The notes beneath the pieces are model-generated. The model ran no database searches, had not been told where the DNA came from, and saw only the letters and a list, made by a program, of their open reading frames with translations. From a virus: a stretch of DNA of 35,013 bases. Below, in pieces: positions 11,014-35,013 of this stretch; the stretch's first letter is position 1, and each line of letters begins with the position of its first letter. The translations under genes were made by a program, and so were the position numbers. The DNA lies in IMG/VR virus record IMGVR_UViG_3300013306_000038, positions 1-35,013 of that record; one strand, 5' to 3'.

Positions 11014-11634
11014 TCAGAAGTTGCCGGGCGCGACTTGAAAGCAAGTAACGCCTTCAGCGCGCCACATCGCAACAACCTTATCGCGGTCATCGAACACGCC
11101 TGCAAGGCGCTTGCGCGTCGGTTTGGACATCAGGTTAAGCCACTTGCGCTTAAGCTGTTCATCGGGCGTAAAGTCGCCTTCAGGCCGCATCGTCAGCATG
11201 TCATCGATCTGCTTACGTGGGATGCCAAGAAAGACCACGAGCCAATTCAGTGTTTGCGCGCGAACCTTCGAGTCGCGACCAGACCATATAAGAATCTGGT
11301 TCCCCATGGAGTAAAGCTGAAGGAACATACCGATCACGCCAGCATTCGGCATGTCATCAACGCAAGCTTCGAAGAACGCGTTCCAATCGGGTTTGAATGT
11401 GCGGTCTTTCCAGCGGCCCTTACCGACGCAGTGACGGCAATCGCCATTCCAAGCGCGAAGTTCGCCGTCAGCAGTCTCGCGCCCAATCTTGCTAAACGTG
11501 CCGGTTCCGTTGCAATACGGGCATTCAATGATTGGGGGCTCTACGAGGTGACGGCGATGATCGATCAGCGCGAGCGTGCCATCGAGATCAAAGATATAAA
11601 GCGGGGGTTGCCTCTCAACGTTTGTATGTTGCAT
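11014..11634 (-). CDS. HAD-superfamily phosphatase with DnaJ-like zinc insertion
   Basis: The ATG at 11634 (206 residues) has a strong AAAGGAAAG site and was preferred over upstream in-frame codons. HAD motifs: Y-I-F-D-L-D-G-T-L (D16, D18), I-W-S-G-R-D (116-121) and G-V-F-D-D-R-D (D182, D183). Between motif I and motif II is a pair of C-x2-C-x-G-x-G motifs (C38/C41 and C66/C69) like the zinc-binding repeats of DnaJ, placed where HAD cap domains insert. The shared M-R-P-E-G-D segment marks it as a paralog of the neighbouring HAD protein. It probably removes phosphates from nucleic-acid ends or nucleotides; the substrate is not known. Confidence 0.87.
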   Translation of the reverse strand: MQHTNVERQPPLYIFDLDGTLALIDHRRHLVEPPIIECPYCNGTGTFSKIGRETADGELRAWNGDCRHCVGKGRWKDRTFKPDWNAFFEACVDDMPNAGVIGMFLQLYSMGNQILIWSGRDSKVRAQTLNWLVVFLGIPRKQIDDMLTMRPEGDFTPDEQLKRKWLNLMSKPTRKRLAGVFDDRDKVVAMWRAEGVTCFQVAPGNF

Positions 11635-11797
11635 CTTTCTTTCCTTTGTCAATGGATTCTTGTCGTTCTTTCTCGCAACGTTCATAGATCATCGCGGCCT
11701 TTTGATTATCCTTCAATTCAAGCGCCGCGTATAGTTCAGAATTTGGTGCGGCCCATGTATCTTTGAAAGGTAAGCACTTCTTACGGTTGACTGGCAT
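11615..11797 (-). CDS. Hypothetical small charged protein (60 aa)
   Basis: The ATG at 11797 is preceded by AAGGA at good spacing and overlaps the upstream gene by 17 bases; the stop overlaps the HAD start by 20 bases. The product begins M-P-V-N-R-K-K-C and is rich in lysine and glutamate, with one predicted long helix (E-L-Y-A-A-L-E-L-K-D-N-Q-K-A-A-M-I-Y-E-R-C-E-K-E). No family is recognised. Coupling suggests it is made together with the HAD phosphatase. Confidence 0.65.
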   Translation of the reverse strand: MPVNRKKCLPFKDTWAAPNSELYAALELKDNQKAAMIYERCEKERQESIDKGKKDATYKR

Positions 11798-15682: not shown

Positions 15683-16795
15683 GTGAATGATTTGCAGAAA
15701 ATGACGGCGGACGCTGAAACGTTTTTGTTCGAGCTTGGCAAGTTCTTGCCGGAAGAAGAACGCGTGATGGTTGGATATGCAGCAGACGCGACCGTGAAGA
15801 TCGACGCCAACGGGCGCAAGCTCAACGCGGGATGGTGGCCTGCCGCCTACAAACCGGGCAAGGCGATCGACGTCAATAAGAACTGCTATGCCTGCATCAG
15901 TTCATCAAAGAAAACACCCAACCCGAAAACCGGCGTGCTGCGTTACTGGCGCGGCGAAGAATCGTTTGGTCATGGGCTCGCGCTCATGGTCGATGACATC
16001 GGCAGCGGTAAGGGTTCGAAGGGCGGACTGACCATTGAGGATCTGAGTAATGTACTGTTCCCTACTGCGATTATCGAGACCAGTCCGGACAACTATCAGT
16101 TATGGTATTTCATGGACGTTCCGGAACCGTCGCTTATCCGCTTCAAGGCTTTTCTCTATGCATTCGTCGCAAACGTCCTTAAGAAAGGGGGCGATAACAC
16201 GATCAAGGACATCTCCCGGTACGGTCGCATGCCATGCGGATACAACAATAAACGGGTCAGCGGCGAAAACAATGCCGCGCTCAAGTACGCCGATTCAAAG
16301 GGTAAGCCGTGGCGTGTTCAAATTCGTGAAGCGAACTATGACATTCGTTACACGATCGACGAAATAGCGGACGCTTTCAAGTTCCAGATCGAGCTTCCCG
16401 TTAAACGTGAAGTGAAGGTTGTTGAAGGCGAGTATCGGTTCGATAGCGCTTGGCTTAAGATGGCCGATCGAATTCTGAGCAAAGCGAAACAGGGCGAAGG
16501 TTCGGGCGGCGAAGTTCGCATGAACATGAGCGGCAAGTATCGTATCGCCTGCCCTTGGGGTCACGAGCACACAAACGGCGATCCATACGGCGCATATTTT
16601 CGCGGCCCGATCCCGGGGGCGGAACATGAGTTTGTGTTCGGTTGCGCGCACGATACCTGCCGCAAGATCAACCGGCGAACGTGGTCGGCATTTGTCGATG
16701 AAGTGGTGATGCCTTATGTCGTCATGAAGTTGGATGAAGCGAGTCAAAACGATCAGTGGTATTTCGAAACTCTTGGAGAAACGCATGACGCCTGA
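15683..16795 (+). CDS. AEP-type DNA primase with C-terminal zinc-binding motif
   Basis: The start is GTG 15683 (370 residues), with AAAGGAAAG just upstream. Features of archaeo-eukaryotic-type primases found in plasmids and phages are visible: L-A-L-M-V-D-D-I-G (99-107, the metal-binding acidic pair D104/D105), I-I-E-T-S-P-D-N-Y-Q-L-W-Y (130-142), and D-I-S-R-Y-G-R-M-P-C-G (176-186), the usual S-R-x-x-R-x-P-G-like motif. The C-terminal part has a C/H cluster, C-P-W-G-H-E-H (290-296) and C-A-H-D-T-C (321-326), which probably binds zinc and contacts template. It would lay primers for the phage Pol III. It is the first gene of the rightward operon and overlaps the next by 11 bases. Confidence 0.8.
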   Translation: MNDLQKMTADAETFLFELGKFLPEEERVMVGYAADATVKIDANGRKLNAGWWPAAYKPGKAIDVNKNCYACISSSKKTPNPKTGVLRYWRGEESFGHGLALMVDDIGSGKGSKGGLTIEDLSNVLFPTAIIETSPDNYQLWYFMDVPEPSLIRFKAFLYAFVANVLKKGGDNTIKDISRYGRMPCGYNNKRVSGENNAALKYADSKGKPWRVQIREANYDIRYTIDEIADAFKFQIELPVKREVKVVEGEYRFDSAWLKMADRILSKAKQGEGSGGEVRMNMSGKYRIACPWGHEHTNGDPYGAYFRGPIPGAEHEFVFGCAHDTCRKINRRTWSAFVDEVVMPYVVMKLDEASQNDQWYFETLGETHDA

Positions 16796-16958
16796 AGAAC
16801 TGCAGGAAAAGAAAAAGGAACTGCTTGACGCGATTCACAAAGCGGAAATTCTCGCATTCGCCTATGCGCGCGAACTCGAAGTTGGCGATCAGCGAACGGC
16901 GGCGTTCGAGGTAGCGGAGAACCTTCGTTGTGCAACGCGCGTTCGAGTGAGGGCATGA
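16785..16958 (+). CDS. Hypothetical small helical protein (57 aa)
   Basis: ATG 16785 has GGAG at good spacing and lies inside the primase 3' end; the longer upstream frame is not used. The product is one or two charged helices (E-E-L-Q-E-K-K-K-E-L-L-D-A-I-H-K-A-E-I-L-A-F-A-Y-A-R-E-L). No family. It ends in an ATGA overlap with the next gene. Confidence 0.72.
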   Translation: MTPEELQEKKKELLDAIHKAEILAFAYARELEVGDQRTAAFEVAENLRCATRVRVRA

Positions 16959-17164
16959 TCGTCTTCAAGGTTGCACGCGGTCATGGCGGGGCGCGCGTGT
17001 TCTACGATCGCAAGCGCAACAAAGACGGTTCCCGCTGGCGCGGTTATCACTATCTGGCGGTAACCGTTTGCGTTTATTCAAAGGGCTCGTTCTGGCGAGT
17101 CATTATCGGGCCGCTTGCCATATGCTTTTTGGCACGGAACACCAAAGGAGAAAGGAAGAAATGA
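16955..17164 (+). CDS. Hypothetical small basic protein with hydrophobic C-terminal half (69 aa)
   Basis: ATG 16955 overlaps the previous stop (ATGA). The N-terminal 30 residues are basic (H-G-G-A-R-V-F-Y-D-R-K-R-N-K-D). The later part, Y-L-A-V-T-V-C-V-Y and V-I-I-G-P-L-A-I-C-F-L-A, is hydrophobic and may be a membrane hairpin or buried beta sheet. No family is recognised. Confidence 0.7.
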   Translation: MIVFKVARGHGGARVFYDRKRNKDGSRWRGYHYLAVTVCVYSKGSFWRVIIGPLAICFLARNTKGERKK

Positions 17165-26869: not shown

Positions 26870-26889
26870 GACGTGAAGCAGGAAAGCGA

Positions 26890-26916
26890 AGCCCCGAACC
26901 CGGGGCTTTTTCTTTT
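26890..26916 (+). terminator. Rho-independent terminator
   Basis: A 7-bp perfect stem AGCCCCG/CGGGGCT (26890-26896 and 26901-26907) with a 4-base loop is followed by a T-rich run to 26916. It ends the rightward operon after the VapE-like gene. Confidence 0.88.
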
Positions 26917-27360
26917 ATTGTGGGAAATTTTCGACGATTTGTAATGGTTCAGTAATTGTTACAAATGCAGCTTAAGCACTTACTTAAAAACAAAGTGAAA
27001 TAGTACAGCGATATTTTTCACAATGCTGAACGTGGTGCATGATTGTCAACAATTCGAGCAAAAAATACATTTCTGTATTTTCCCGGAAAGCCTTATCCAG
27101 TATAGGATTGCAGAAACAAAATACACAAATCCCAAAATACAAAGTGGTTTTCAAACCTGCTACAGCCACTTATAAATCCAACTATATCTTAAGATATAGT
27201 GCTCGTTAGTACTTATATATAATGTATGTATATTTGTATATTTGTATTTTTAGAGAATTTTAGGATTTTGAATCAATAACTTAGCGGCGATTCCTAAAAA
27301 TACATTGAAGAGTTTTGCAAAGTACTTTCCAAAAAGCCGTCATTTTTAGGGGTAAACACC
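26917..27360. other. AT-rich non-coding region, candidate replication origin
   Basis: These 444 bases hold no credible gene and are far more AT-rich than the rest of the window, with A/T tracts, repeated AAAATACA/TGTATTTT words and TATATAAT-like stretches. They contain a 20-bp perfect palindrome (27181-27200), an AAGTGG...CCACTT dyad around 27142-27172, one TGAAATAG box (26996-27003) and a TAGCGGCGAT repeat at the right edge. No exact DnaA box (TTATCCACA) was seen. Position beside the helicase gene and between two parS-like sites supports an origin, but this is inference. A regulatory or recently acquired segment is the alternative. Confidence 0.45.
27181..27200. repeat. 20-bp perfect palindrome
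   Basis: ACTATATCTTAAGATATAGT is its own reverse complement over all 20 bases. It lies in the AT-rich region and could be a protein-binding site or cruciform-forming element at an origin. Confidence 0.85.
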
Positions 27361-27370
27361 TAGCGGCGAT
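27282..27370 (+). repeat. Direct repeat TAGCGGCGAT (two copies)
   Basis: TAGCGGCGAT occurs at 27282-27291 and 27361-27370, 79 bases apart, at the boundary where the AT-rich region passes into normal composition. The sequence between contains CCTAAAAATACATT and the related ATTTTTAGG. Two copies are too few to call iterons. Confidence 0.6.
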
Positions 27371-27486
27371 CTTCGATCACCTTTGCCCTTCTGGTCTTTA
27401 ATGGCGCGGCAGATCCCGGCGTCGGAAAGGTAGGGGAGCGCGGTCGAGTAGTGGAGATCTGCCAACGAACGAGGCGGCAGGAAGCT
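27346..27486 (-). pseudogene. Possible 3' remnant of a gene (46 codons, no start)
   Basis: After the AT-rich region the GC content returns to normal. A minus-strand frame here reads like a real C-terminus (L-P-P-R-S-L-A-D-L-H-Y-S-T-A-L-P-Y-L, then I-C-R-A-I-K-D-Q-K-G-K-G-D-R-R), ending with TAA at 27346. It has no ATG and a stop codon a few codons upstream, so it would be a truncated remnant or a chance frame. The product is not recognised. Confidence 0.25.
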
Positions 27487-27518
27487 AAACGCATGAAAGC
27501 TTTAGCTATTCGTCGGTA

Positions 27519-27524
27519 TATAAT
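27519..27524 (+). promoter_or_regulatory. Putative -10 box before the terminase-like gene
   Basis: A perfect TATAAT lies 33 bases before the GTG of the 27558 gene. The expected -35 position (around 27495-27501) has no good match, so an activator or a partial promoter is likely. Confidence 0.4.
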
Positions 27525-27557
27525 CGGCGCAATTAAAAAGCGTTTTACGGGCCGAAC

Positions 27558-28451: not shown

Positions 28452-29096
28452 TCACTTCGATGTGTCTGCAACCGCGTATTGCTTCTGACCGTTCGTATCG
28501 ACCATCACGGGTTGCGTCGGCGAGTAACCTTTCGGCTTCACCATGCACTTGCGTCCGCCCGTCATTTCTGCCGTGGCTTGGATCGCGTCATAGATCTCGC
28601 TCGATACCATGCAACGCAGGTTGAATGCGATTTGCATGTCTTGCGCTTTCAGAGCGTCGGTCGGCTCGATCACGTTCTGACGTGCGAAGTCGTTTGATAC
28701 CCAACCCTTCTGGCAGTCTTCGAGCCCGTTGCCGAATCCGAAATAGATCGATGCGCCCGGCCCTGCTGCCCCGGCTTGTGCTTTCGTGCCGTAGCAGTTG
28801 TATTGCGAACCGCCTGCCCCGTATGCGCCAGCAATCGGCGCGGAGACGTTGAGGATCGTTTCGGTTGTGTGCGCCGGATTGGCGTTGAACGTTTGCCCGG
28901 CGATTGCGCTCGATCGAGCATCGGCGTTTTGGTTTGCGACCGCGTTCGCAGATTGACCCGGCGTCGCGCCCGGCGATCCAGTCAGCGCGGCAGATGGCCC
29001 AATCGTGGGCGTGCCGACTGCTTGAGCGCTTGCCAGCGCGGAAAACATCAGCATCGTCGAGGCGAAGGCCGCGATAAACAAATTCTTGAGTTTCAT
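28452..29096 (-). CDS. Secreted/periplasmic phage protein with signal peptide (214 aa)
   Basis: The N-terminus is a classical signal peptide: M-K-L-K-N-L, a hydrophobic core (L-F-I-A-A-F-A-S-T-M-L-M-F-S-A-L), then A-S-A-Q-A with likely cleavage at about residue 23-25. The mature part is alanine/glycine/asparagine-rich at first, then has four cysteines (Y-N-C-Y-G, E-D-C-Q-K, L-R-C-M, R-K-C-M) that could form two disulfides in the periplasm. The C-terminal pattern C-Y-G...D-C...L-R-C-M resembles secreted proteins seen in other proteobacterial phages, of unknown role. A GGAAG site precedes the ATG. It pairs with the next gene, another secreted protein. Confidence 0.75.
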   Translation of the reverse strand: MKLKNLFIAAFASTMLMFSALASAQAVGTPTIGPSAALTGSPGATPGQSANAVANQNADARSSAIAGQTFNANPAHTTETILNVSAPIAGAYGAGGSQYNCYGTKAQAGAAGPGASIYFGFGNGLEDCQKGWVSNDFARQNVIEPTDALKAQDMQIAFNLRCMVSSEIYDAIQATAEMTGGRKCMVKPKGYSPTQPVMVDTNGQKQYAVADTSK

Positions 29097-29196: not shown

Positions 29197-29643
29197 TTAG
29201 AAGCCGGTCGAATAGTTGATGCCACTGTAAGCCGTGGACGAATAATCGCCGCCGCCGCCAGACTTGCCCGTGCCGTATGCATCGCCCGTCGTCTTGCCGA
29301 CTGCGTTCGCATACGAGTCCGCCGCGCCACCGTTTACGCTTTGGCTGAAACCGCCTGCAGCGCCGATTCCTGCAGCAGCGCCCGGGGCATAACCGCCGAC
29401 CGCGCCAGCGCCGACCACGATCACGGTTCCGGCGTAGGACGTGGCGTTGCCGCCGCTGTTCGCTTGCTGATACGACTTGCCGTTGCCGTTCGTGCCTGCC
29501 GTCGAGCCAGCGCCGCCGCTGAAGTCAACCGATGAATTCACGCCGCCAGCGAACGAACCTGCAGCTTGAGCATGACCGGTGAAGACCAGCGAAGACAGAG
29601 CCAGTGCAGCAGCGATCGAAGACATGCGAAATGCGTTTTTCAT
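29197..29643 (-). CDS. Secreted glycine/serine-rich protein with signal peptide (148 aa)
   Basis: The signal peptide is M-K-N-A-F-R-M-S-S-I-A-A-A-L-A-L-S-S-L-V-F-T-G-H-A-Q-A with cleavage after A-Q-A. The mature chain is low in charge and rich in G, S, A, N and Y (G-G-V-N-S-S, Y-Q-Q-A-N-S-G-G-N-A-T-S-Y-A), a composition like surface fibres or amyloid-prone proteins. The middle has a hydrophobic A/G segment (V-I-V-V-G-A-G-A-V-G-G-Y). No cysteines. A GGAG site lies at good spacing. Function unknown. Confidence 0.75.
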   Translation of the reverse strand: MKNAFRMSSIAAALALSSLVFTGHAQAAGSFAGGVNSSVDFSGGAGSTAGTNGNGKSYQQANSGGNATSYAGTVIVVGAGAVGGYAPGAAAGIGAAGGFSQSVNGGAADSYANAVGKTTGDAYGTGKSGGGGDYSSTAYSGINYSTGF

Positions 29644-29704: not shown

Positions 29705-29738
29705 GTTCTTCTACTGACTTAGCCCCAATGAAGGGGCT
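29705..29738 (-). terminator. Gene-end hairpin with repeated flank (copy 1)
   Basis: An AGCCCC/GGGGCT stem (29721-29726 and 29733-29738) follows the stop codon of the 29744 gene on the minus strand. It is flanked by GTTCTTCTACTGACT (29705-29719), which recurs exactly at 30250-30264. There is no T-run, so it may terminate weakly or stabilise the mRNA end. Confidence 0.5.
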
Positions 29739-29743
29739 TGAGG

Positions 29744-29980
29744 TTATGAAAATTGAGCGAGAACTTTAGGGTCTAGGTTTCTTGCTATCGTCGTATCGAC
29801 GACAAGCTCTGTTACCTGCTGGCCCAACAAAACGTGAGAAACCTCATACTCGATTCGAACGATTTCATCCTTGCTGTTCTTCGTGATCAAGATGTCGGTA
29901 ATCGTTTCTTGCCGTGCAACCTTGCGGCCTTGTGAGCGCATGAACGAAAGGCCGATCGGGAAGCGTGCTTTGCGAATCAT
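29744..29980 (-). CDS. Hypothetical protein (78 aa)
   Basis: The ATG at 29980 has AAAAGGATAG upstream and was preferred over a longer frame that runs through the 5' leader. The product is basic at the start (M-I-R-K-A-R-F-P-I-G, R-S-Q-G-R-K-V-A-R) and beta-rich after (I-T-D-I-L-I-T-K-N, I-V-R-I-E-Y-E-V-S-H-V-L). No family is recognised. It is driven by promoter P2 (30036-30064). Confidence 0.7.
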   Translation of the reverse strand: MIRKARFPIGLSFMRSQGRKVARQETITDILITKNSKDEIVRIEYEVSHVLLGQQVTELVVDTTIARNLDPKVLAQFS

Positions 29981-30035
29981 TTTTCTATCCTTTTCTTTGG
30001 TTTCTGGTCGGGTCTTGCTGCAACCCATGACTAGA

Positions 30036-30075
30036 ATCTTACTTTTTATGAACTAGCAACGCAAGCACTATTTCA
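30036..30075 (-). promoter_or_regulatory. Promoter P2 with TGAAATAG box
   Basis: Minus-strand TTGCGT (30059-30064) and TAAGAT (30036-30041) are 17 bases apart. A TGAAATAG box (30068-30075) lies three bases upstream of the -35, and CTAGTTCA (30049-30056) is in the spacer, so the two boxes face each other as an inverted pair. The transcript would begin near the GATTCTAGTCATGGG leader shared with P3. Confidence 0.65.
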
Positions 30076-30109
30076 GAAATATTTGTTCTTTTTGCAACAT
30101 CTCGAAAAG

Positions 30110-30250
30110 CATCAATAGCGCACGTTTGTCTTTTCCACTAGAACAGATCCGGATCGACATTCTAGGGTGCAGAAAATTTGTCGCGGCGCTTGCCGGGTGT
30201 ACAGGCCGGTTCCGCTTCCCGACTCGTTTTCCAAACGTGCGCTATTGATG
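30110..30250. repeat. 141-bp non-coding element bounded by 19-bp perfect inverted repeats
   Basis: CATCAATAGCGCACGTTTG at 30110-30128 is the exact reverse complement of 30232-30250. The 103 bases between contain a nested dyad, CTAGAA (30138-30143) with TTCTAG (30160-30165) around the palindrome GATCCGGATC (30146-30155). No coding frame with a ribosome site covers it. It could fold as a long stem-loop RNA, or be a MITE-like or invertible element. No flanking target duplication was seen. It fills the 308-base gap between genes at 29981-30289, together with promoter P2. Confidence 0.75.
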
Positions 30251-30283
30251 TTCTTCTACTGACTAAGCCCCGTCTGGCGGGGC
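30250..30283 (-). terminator. Gene-end hairpin with repeated flank (copy 2)
   Basis: A GCCCCG/CGGGGC stem (30267-30272 and 30278-30283) follows the stop codon of the 30290 gene on the minus strand. The flank GTTCTTCTACTGACT (30250-30264) is identical to that at 29705-29719. Its last base abuts the inverted-repeat element. Confidence 0.5.
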
Positions 30284-30289
30284 GTTGGG

Positions 30290-30508
30290 TTACTTTTTGA
30301 TTTTGTTGAACCGTTCGATAACTTCGTTGCGCGTTCCTTTGAAGTGAAGGAGCCATTTCCCGACCATGCGACCCGAACGATAGTTTTCACGGAACACATA
30401 AATACCGTAAGACGAACCCGTCAATTCGCACACTCGCTTTGCAGCGATGATCTTTTCACCCTTGCCGTTTTTGCCTACACATTCGGCGATGGTCAGAAGT
30501 GTGCTCAT
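30290..30508 (-). CDS. Hypothetical basic protein (72 aa)
   Basis: ATG 30508 has an AAGGGGAAA site. The product is basic and compact: strands around I-I-A-A-K-R-V-C-E-L-T-G and Y-G-I-Y-V-F-R-E-N, then K-W-L-L-H-F-K-G-T-R-N-E-V-I-E-R-F as a C-terminal helix. No family is recognised. It is controlled by promoter P1 and closed by a hairpin, so it is a single-gene unit. Confidence 0.73.
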   Translation of the reverse strand: MSTLLTIAECVGKNGKGEKIIAAKRVCELTGSSYGIYVFRENYRSGRMVGKWLLHFKGTRNEVIERFNKIKK

Positions 30509-30544: not shown

Positions 30545-30585
30545 AGTATCGTCGAAAGTGAACTAAGCCGTCAACACTATTTCAC
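30545..30585 (-). promoter_or_regulatory. Promoter P1 with TGAAATAG box
   Basis: TTGACG (30569-30574) and GATACT (30545-30550) are spaced by 18 bases on the minus strand. TGAAATAG (30578-30585) lies three bases upstream of the -35, and a TTAGTTCA box is in the spacer. A third box, TGAATTAG on the plus strand, lies near 30596. It drives the 30290-30508 gene. Confidence 0.65.
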
Positions 30586-30618
30586 AAATATTTTTGAATT
30601 AGTGGACTAGGGGAAACA

Positions 30619-34877: not shown

Positions 34878-34936
34878 AATATACAGGACACTAATTCAGA
34901 AAACAATGCTATTTCACAAATTTTTCTGAATTAGTG
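34878..34936 (-). promoter_or_regulatory. Promoter P4 with 15-bp perfect inverted repeat
   Basis: TTGTTT (34901-34906) and TATATT (34878-34883) are spaced by 17 bases on the minus strand. TGAAATAG (34909-34916) lies two bases upstream of the -35. CACTAATTCAGAAAA (34889-34903) and its exact reverse complement (34922-34936) flank the -35 and the box, a typical layout for a dimeric operator. Confidence 0.7.
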
Positions 34937-35013
34937 TTGCTGTGTCGCACAAACTCAACATCTGCCGGGATCTGGAACGAACCGAGCAACGTCCGCTTGT
35001 TCATGATGAAGAC
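34909..35013 (-). CDS. 3' end of a gene entering from the right edge (partial)
   Basis: A minus-strand frame from the edge to TAG at 34909-34911 reads like coding sequence (R-T-L-L-G-S-F-Q-I-P-A-D-V-E-F-V-R-H). It contains an in-frame ATG near 35004 without a ribosome site, so it is more likely the tail of a longer gene. Its stop lies in the P4 box, as the 32531 gene's stop does in P3. Too short to identify. Confidence 0.4.
   Translation of the reverse strand, partial: VFIMNKRTLLGSFQIPADVEFVRHSNTNSEKFVK

What the first reader, a model, noticed from the sequence alone, without database searches (positions are those of the whole stretch)
30110..30250. 141-bp element bounded by 19-bp perfect inverted repeats
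The two 19-bp arms match exactly, and a second nested dyad (CTAGAA...TTCTAG around GATCCGGATC) lies inside. No gene covers the element, and it sits between a gene-end hairpin and promoter P2. It could be a structured non-coding RNA, an invertible switch or a miniature mobile element. This is the strongest unexplained structure in the right arm.
Basis: seen in the sequence. Interest (0 to 1): 0.7.

Follow-up and report, generated by a model that had tools for sequence, protein, structure and literature searches.

The report
Orphan long hairpin between phage genes
A phage carries one real, non-random 141-base non-coding stretch whose ends can pair into a long RNA or DNA stem, but no other copy or relative of it was found, so it is most likely an mRNA-processing or boundary hairpin, and its function is unproven.

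Summary
The 19-bp arms 30110-30128 and 30232-30250 match perfectly. They extend to 25 nt at 92%, and this is the longest inverted repeat in the window. Simulated sequences never exceeded 14 bp. The nested dyad exists, but a 6-bp arm is chance-level, and the 103-nt interior folds no better than shuffles (z -0.4 and -0.6); the whole signal is the outer stem.

The window is a 35-kb piece of a myovirus related to Bcepfunavirus and PB1-like phages. The element lies on the leftward early transcript, between an intercistronic hairpin ending the 72-aa gene and the promoter of the 94-aa gene.

No copy was found in IMG/VR, INPHARED, 17 related phage records or 398 genomes of a Pseudomonadota sample. A GTDB-wide scan for one arm gave three isolated hits. 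The element is absent from the compared relatives that carry the neighbouring genes. There is no target-site duplication, and no recombinase or transposase was seen among the proteins scanned. A mobile element or invertible switch is therefore unsupported.

Best guess (about 0.35): a long-stem intercistronic RNA element acting as a processing, stability or transcription boundary. The main rival is a recent neutral inverted duplication. Covariation could not be tested because no homologue exists.

The parts
30232..30250 (-). 5' arm of the long stem on the leftward transcript (19 nt perfect; weaker extension to 30256)
30110..30128 (-). 3' arm of the long stem on the leftward transcript (19 nt perfect; weaker extension to 30104)
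30129..30231 (.). 103-nt interior; can fold into two side hairpins, but not better than shuffled sequence
30138..30165 (.). nested dyad CTAGAA...TTCTAG around the palindrome GATCCGGATC; chance-level
30250..30285 (-). intercistronic hairpin (GCCCC...GGGGC) with tail TTAGTCAGTAGAAGAAC, no U-tract, directly upstream of and overlapping the extended 5' arm
30290..30508 (-). 72-aa early gene just upstream; homologues in Karil-Mokiny-1 and Maja, unknown function
30545..30593 (-). promoter P1 upstream of the 72-aa gene: AT-rich box AAATATTTGTGAAATAGTG, TTGACG-18-GATACT
30040..30084 (-). promoter P2, 26 nt downstream of the element: AAATATTTCTGAAATAGTGCTTGCGT...TAAGAT
29744..30028 (-). 94-aa gene downstream of P2; homologues in Karil-Mokiny-1 and one IMG/VR contig

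Best explanation
A long-stem intercistronic element of the leftward early transcript. Shown: the perfect 19-bp (imperfect 25-bp) inverted repeat, its place after the 72-aa gene and before P2, and its stable predicted stem. Inferred: RNA polymerase from P1 reads through the upstream hairpin, which has no U-tract, and the 141 nt fold into a long double-stranded stem closing a loosely folded loop of about 100 nt. That stem then serves as a processing or boundary site: cleavage by an RNase III-type enzyme, or a block to 3' exonuclease decay or to read-through. It would separate the 72-aa mRNA from the P2 transcription unit and might release a roughly 100-nt RNA as a by-product.
For: Inverted repeat far above chance. 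It lies between two same-strand transcription units with recognisable promoters. Full-length fold z about -5.7 (minus) and -6.3 (a slightly shorter stretch, plus), with the arms predicted paired with probability 1.0; the stem persists in a 639-nt transcript model. The neighbouring hairpin lacks a U-tract and a copy of it lies at 29705-29742 upstream of a gene with no obvious promoter, so read-through is plausible.
Against: No relative carries it, so conservation and covariation are untested. The interior fold is chance-level. A stable fold on both strands follows automatically from perfect arms and says nothing about RNA. No expression data. Relatives with the 72-aa gene do without it.
Confidence: 0.35

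Rival explanations
1. A neutral, recent inverted duplication: a replication template switch copied about 19-25 nt in inverse orientation about 100 nt away in an intergenic region, and it has no function.
For: Perfect arms with an unremarkable interior; no copy or relative found; absent at the homologous genes of related phages.
Against: No close relative is available to show the state before the event. Such long perfect arms are rare: in 1.44 Mb of phage loci, arms of 16 bp or more with 40-300 nt spacers occurred only in a few places, mostly repetitive arrays.
Confidence: 0.27
2. A discrete small non-coding RNA with a functional fold (three-way junction closed by the long stem), acting on host or phage targets.
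For: The MFE folds show two side hairpins on the closing stem, best defined on the plus strand.
Against: Interior z-scores of -0.4 and -0.6; no Rfam match; no promoter of its own was found near it on either strand apart from P1 upstream.
Confidence: 0.13
3. A miniature mobile element (MITE or IS remnant) with 19-bp terminal inverted repeats.
For: Size (141 bp) and terminal inverted repeats fit the general anatomy.
Against: No flanking target-site duplication at any tested boundary except a trivial palindromic GCGC inside the arms. No second copy in the window, IMG/VR, INPHARED or plasmids (one weak 32-nt hit). A one-arm scan of GTDB genomes gave 3 isolated exact hits in unrelated taxa; 398 genomes of one phylum gave only short partial hits.
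Confidence: 0.08
4. A DNA-level site: a paired binding site or cruciform controlling P2 or replication.
For: It ends 26 nt upstream of the P2 AT-rich box.
Against: The arms are not themselves dyads and occur nowhere else, including the other promoters of the same type. The AT-rich region after the primase is a better origin candidate.
Confidence: 0.1
5. An invertible switch recombined at the 19-bp arms.
For: Inverted arms flanking a segment.
Against: No site-specific recombinase among the window proteins scanned; no promoter or gene inside the segment.
Confidence: 0.02

Closest known systems
RNase III processing stalks and intercistronic processing hairpins of phage early mRNAs (such as those of T7; from general knowledge)
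   Same: Long double-stranded RNA stem between early genes on one transcript
   Different: T7 sites are compact imperfect hairpins; here a perfect stem closes a 103-nt loop, as in pre-rRNA stalks. Cleavage is not shown.
Miniature inverted-repeat transposable elements
   Same: Small size, terminal inverted repeats, no gene
   Different: Single copy, no target-site duplication, no family found
Intergenic inverted repeats next to phage primases (seen here in L020, L037, L050 and others)
   Same: Long inverted repeats with spacers of about 60-90 nt in related or functionally similar phages
   Different: Those are built of short iterated units and lie just after the primase gene; this one is not iterated and lies in the early-gene arm

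Membership tests
MITE / IS-derived element | terminal inverted repeats | tested here: met
   19-bp perfect arms
MITE / IS-derived element | target-site duplication | tested here: not met
   none at any boundary offset except a palindromic 4-mer within the arms
MITE / IS-derived element | multiple copies in the phage or host genomes | tested here: not met
   single copy in the window and in the collections searched; the actual host is unknown
Invertible DNA switch | cognate recombinase nearby | tested here: not met
   none among the window proteins scanned with Pfam or PHROGs; the window is a fragment, so one elsewhere is not excluded
Invertible DNA switch | both orientations found | not testable with these tools
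   no reads available
Described structured RNA family | match to an Rfam covariance model | tested here: not met
   no match at gathering threshold for the window, none relevant at E up to 5 for the region
Functional structured RNA | pairing conserved by covariation | not testable with these tools
   no homologous sequence found
Functional structured RNA | interior fold more stable than shuffles | tested here: not met
   z -0.40 and -0.56
Intrinsic terminator | GC-rich short-loop stem followed by a U-tract | tested here: not met
   103-nt loop; only CUUUUC follows the 3' arm, and part of it pairs; not reported by the scan
RNase III-type intercistronic processing site | stem of about 20 bp or more of double-stranded RNA in a transcript | tested here: met
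   by prediction only: 19-25 bp stem in the transcript model
RNase III-type intercistronic processing site | cleavage in vivo | not testable with these tools
   needs RNA ends

The most novel reading that the evidence does not exclude
A phage-specific small RNA of about 100 nt, released from early mRNA by cleavage of its own long closing stem, with a regulatory or host-directed role.
Probability: 0.1. Interest if true: 0.55.

Novelty: new member of a known kind. Interest (0 to 1): 0.22.

Why it matters
If transcribed and processed, it would be one more phage-borne long-stem element that organises early mRNA in a phage group whose transcription is little studied. It also marks a good place to look for an early small RNA. 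If it is a neutral inverted duplication, it matters little.

Tried and rejected
Exact-arm scans of IMG/VR (none) and GTDB genomes (three isolated hits in unrelated taxa). Blastn of the element against phages (none) and plasmids (one 32-nt hit in an efflux gene). Element against 17 related phage records (nothing significant) and 398 genomes of one phylum (short partial matches, several inside long open reading frames, treated as chance). Relatives of the two flanking proteins in IMG/VR (one distant locus). Homologous genes in Karil-Mokiny-1 and Maja were read and carry no such element. tRNA and Rfam searches were empty. Target-site duplication rejected. A search by primase alignment gave relatives, none with an equivalent inverted repeat in the early arm. 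A tentative loop-tail pseudoknot in the neighbouring hairpin was considered but allows only about 3 pairs, so I do not claim it. Literature searches turned up no description of such an element; one PB1-like phage paper (PMC3008698) reports predicted sigma70 promoters, terminators and AT-rich intergenic motifs only.

Full report
Observation. The pairing continues outward for six more positions with one mismatch and one G-T, giving 25 nt at 92%. It is the longest perfect inverted repeat in the window. Sixty simulated sequences with the same trinucleotide statistics never gave an arm above 14 bp for spacers up to 300 nt, and extrapolating the observed fall of about 3.5-fold per base puts a 19-bp arm in the range of one in a few thousand windows or rarer. 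The arm motif occurs nowhere else in the window even with three mismatches. The inner dyad is real but trivial: six-base arms and a ten-base palindrome are expected many times in 35 kb.

Context. The window is a 35,013-bp virus record. Its DNA polymerase III alpha subunit and primase/helicase are closest to Luteibacter phage Pluto, Burkholderia phages WTB, Maja, Karil-Mokiny-1 and BcepF1, and Xanthomonas phages XcP1/Carpasina, at about 40-60% identity. It is therefore about half of a PB1-like/Bcepfunavirus-like myovirus genome of the 60-72 kb size class. The right arm reads leftward. Reading the minus strand: promoter P1 (AAATATTTGTGAAATAGTG, TTGACG-18-GATACT; 30593-30545), the 72-aa gene (30508-30290), a hairpin GCCCC/GGGGC with tail TTAGTCAGTAGAAGAAC (30285-30250), the 141-bp element, promoter P2 (from 30084), the 94-aa gene (30028-29744), and a second copy of the hairpin-tail module (29742-29705). 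A third promoter of the same type lies at 32542-32493.

Is it RNA structure? With its arms the element is far more stable than shuffles on either strand (z -5.7 minus, -6.3 plus), and the stem persists when 639 nt of the presumed transcript are folded. But perfect arms guarantee this. The interior alone is not more stable than shuffles (z -0.40 and -0.56). So the evidence supports a stem, not a structured core. Rfam and tRNA searches were empty.

Is it mobile? No second copy was found: window, IMG/VR, INPHARED, plasmids, 17 related phage records. A GTDB-wide scan for one arm gave three isolated hits in unrelated taxa. A sample of 398 genomes of one phylum gave only short partial matches, several of them inside long open reading frames. 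No target-site duplication flanks the repeat. The true host is unknown, so a host-restricted family is not fully excluded.

Is it invertible? No promoter or gene lies inside, and none of the window proteins scanned looks like a recombinase or transposase. The scan did not cover every small ORF, and half the genome is missing.

Is it conserved? The 72-aa gene has homologues in Karil-Mokiny-1 and Maja and the 94-aa gene in Karil-Mokiny-1 and one IMG/VR contig. In Karil-Mokiny-1 the two genes lie about 10 kb apart. In Karil-Mokiny-1 and Maja the gene is followed within a short distance by another gene, without the element. Searches with the primase alignment and with the flanking proteins brought no closer relative. 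Covariation is therefore untestable at present.

Mechanism. I commit, at about 0.35, to a long-stem intercistronic RNA element: P1 transcripts read through the U-tract-less hairpin, the 141 nt form a 19-25 bp duplex, and that duplex is a processing or stability boundary between the 72-aa mRNA and the P2 unit. The stem is predicted; read-through, cleavage and any released RNA are inferred. A neutral template-switch duplication explains perfect arms, an ordinary interior and a lack of relatives almost as well (0.27). The scores are judgements.

Rarity. The element is therefore unusual, but unusual is not the same as functional.

Noticed in passing
29705-29742 and 30250-30285 (minus strand); L004, L095-L099, L111-L114: An intercistronic hairpin, typically AAGCCCC-N6-GGGGCTT, followed by a conserved unpaired tail G(T/C)CAGTA and no U-tract, recurs just before genes in unrelated phages (Pseudomonas Otagovirus and Plaisancevirus, several other Pseudomonas phages, Streptomyces SF3). 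The tail's conservation is unexplained.
   Followed up: partly
32542-32493, 30593-30545, 30084-30040 (minus strand); L022:3030(-), L030:3086(-): A shared promoter type with an AT-rich upstream box ending GAAATAGTG directly before TTGACG (TTGCGT in P2), also present in two related full-length phage contigs.
   Followed up: partly
26870-27557; L006 ~16690-17020, L007 ~16584-16911, L020 ~11612-11717, L037 ~11051-11170, L050 ~2048-2167: A 688-bp AT-rich (GC 0.40) non-coding stretch with inverted repeats follows the primase gene. Other phages with related primases carry long inverted repeats, some made of iterated units such as GGTTACAAG, GTGACAAG or GGAACAAG, at about the same place: a candidate replication origin.
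   Followed up: partly
34888-34937: A 16-bp perfect inverted repeat ACACTAATTCAGAAAA (spacer 18) overlapping a promoter-like AT box facing right near the contig end.
   Followed up: no
28452-29096 and 29197-29643 (minus strand): Two adjacent early-arm genes encode small proteins with signal-peptide-like starts, one of them very glycine/alanine-rich; no Pfam or PHROGs match.
   Followed up: no
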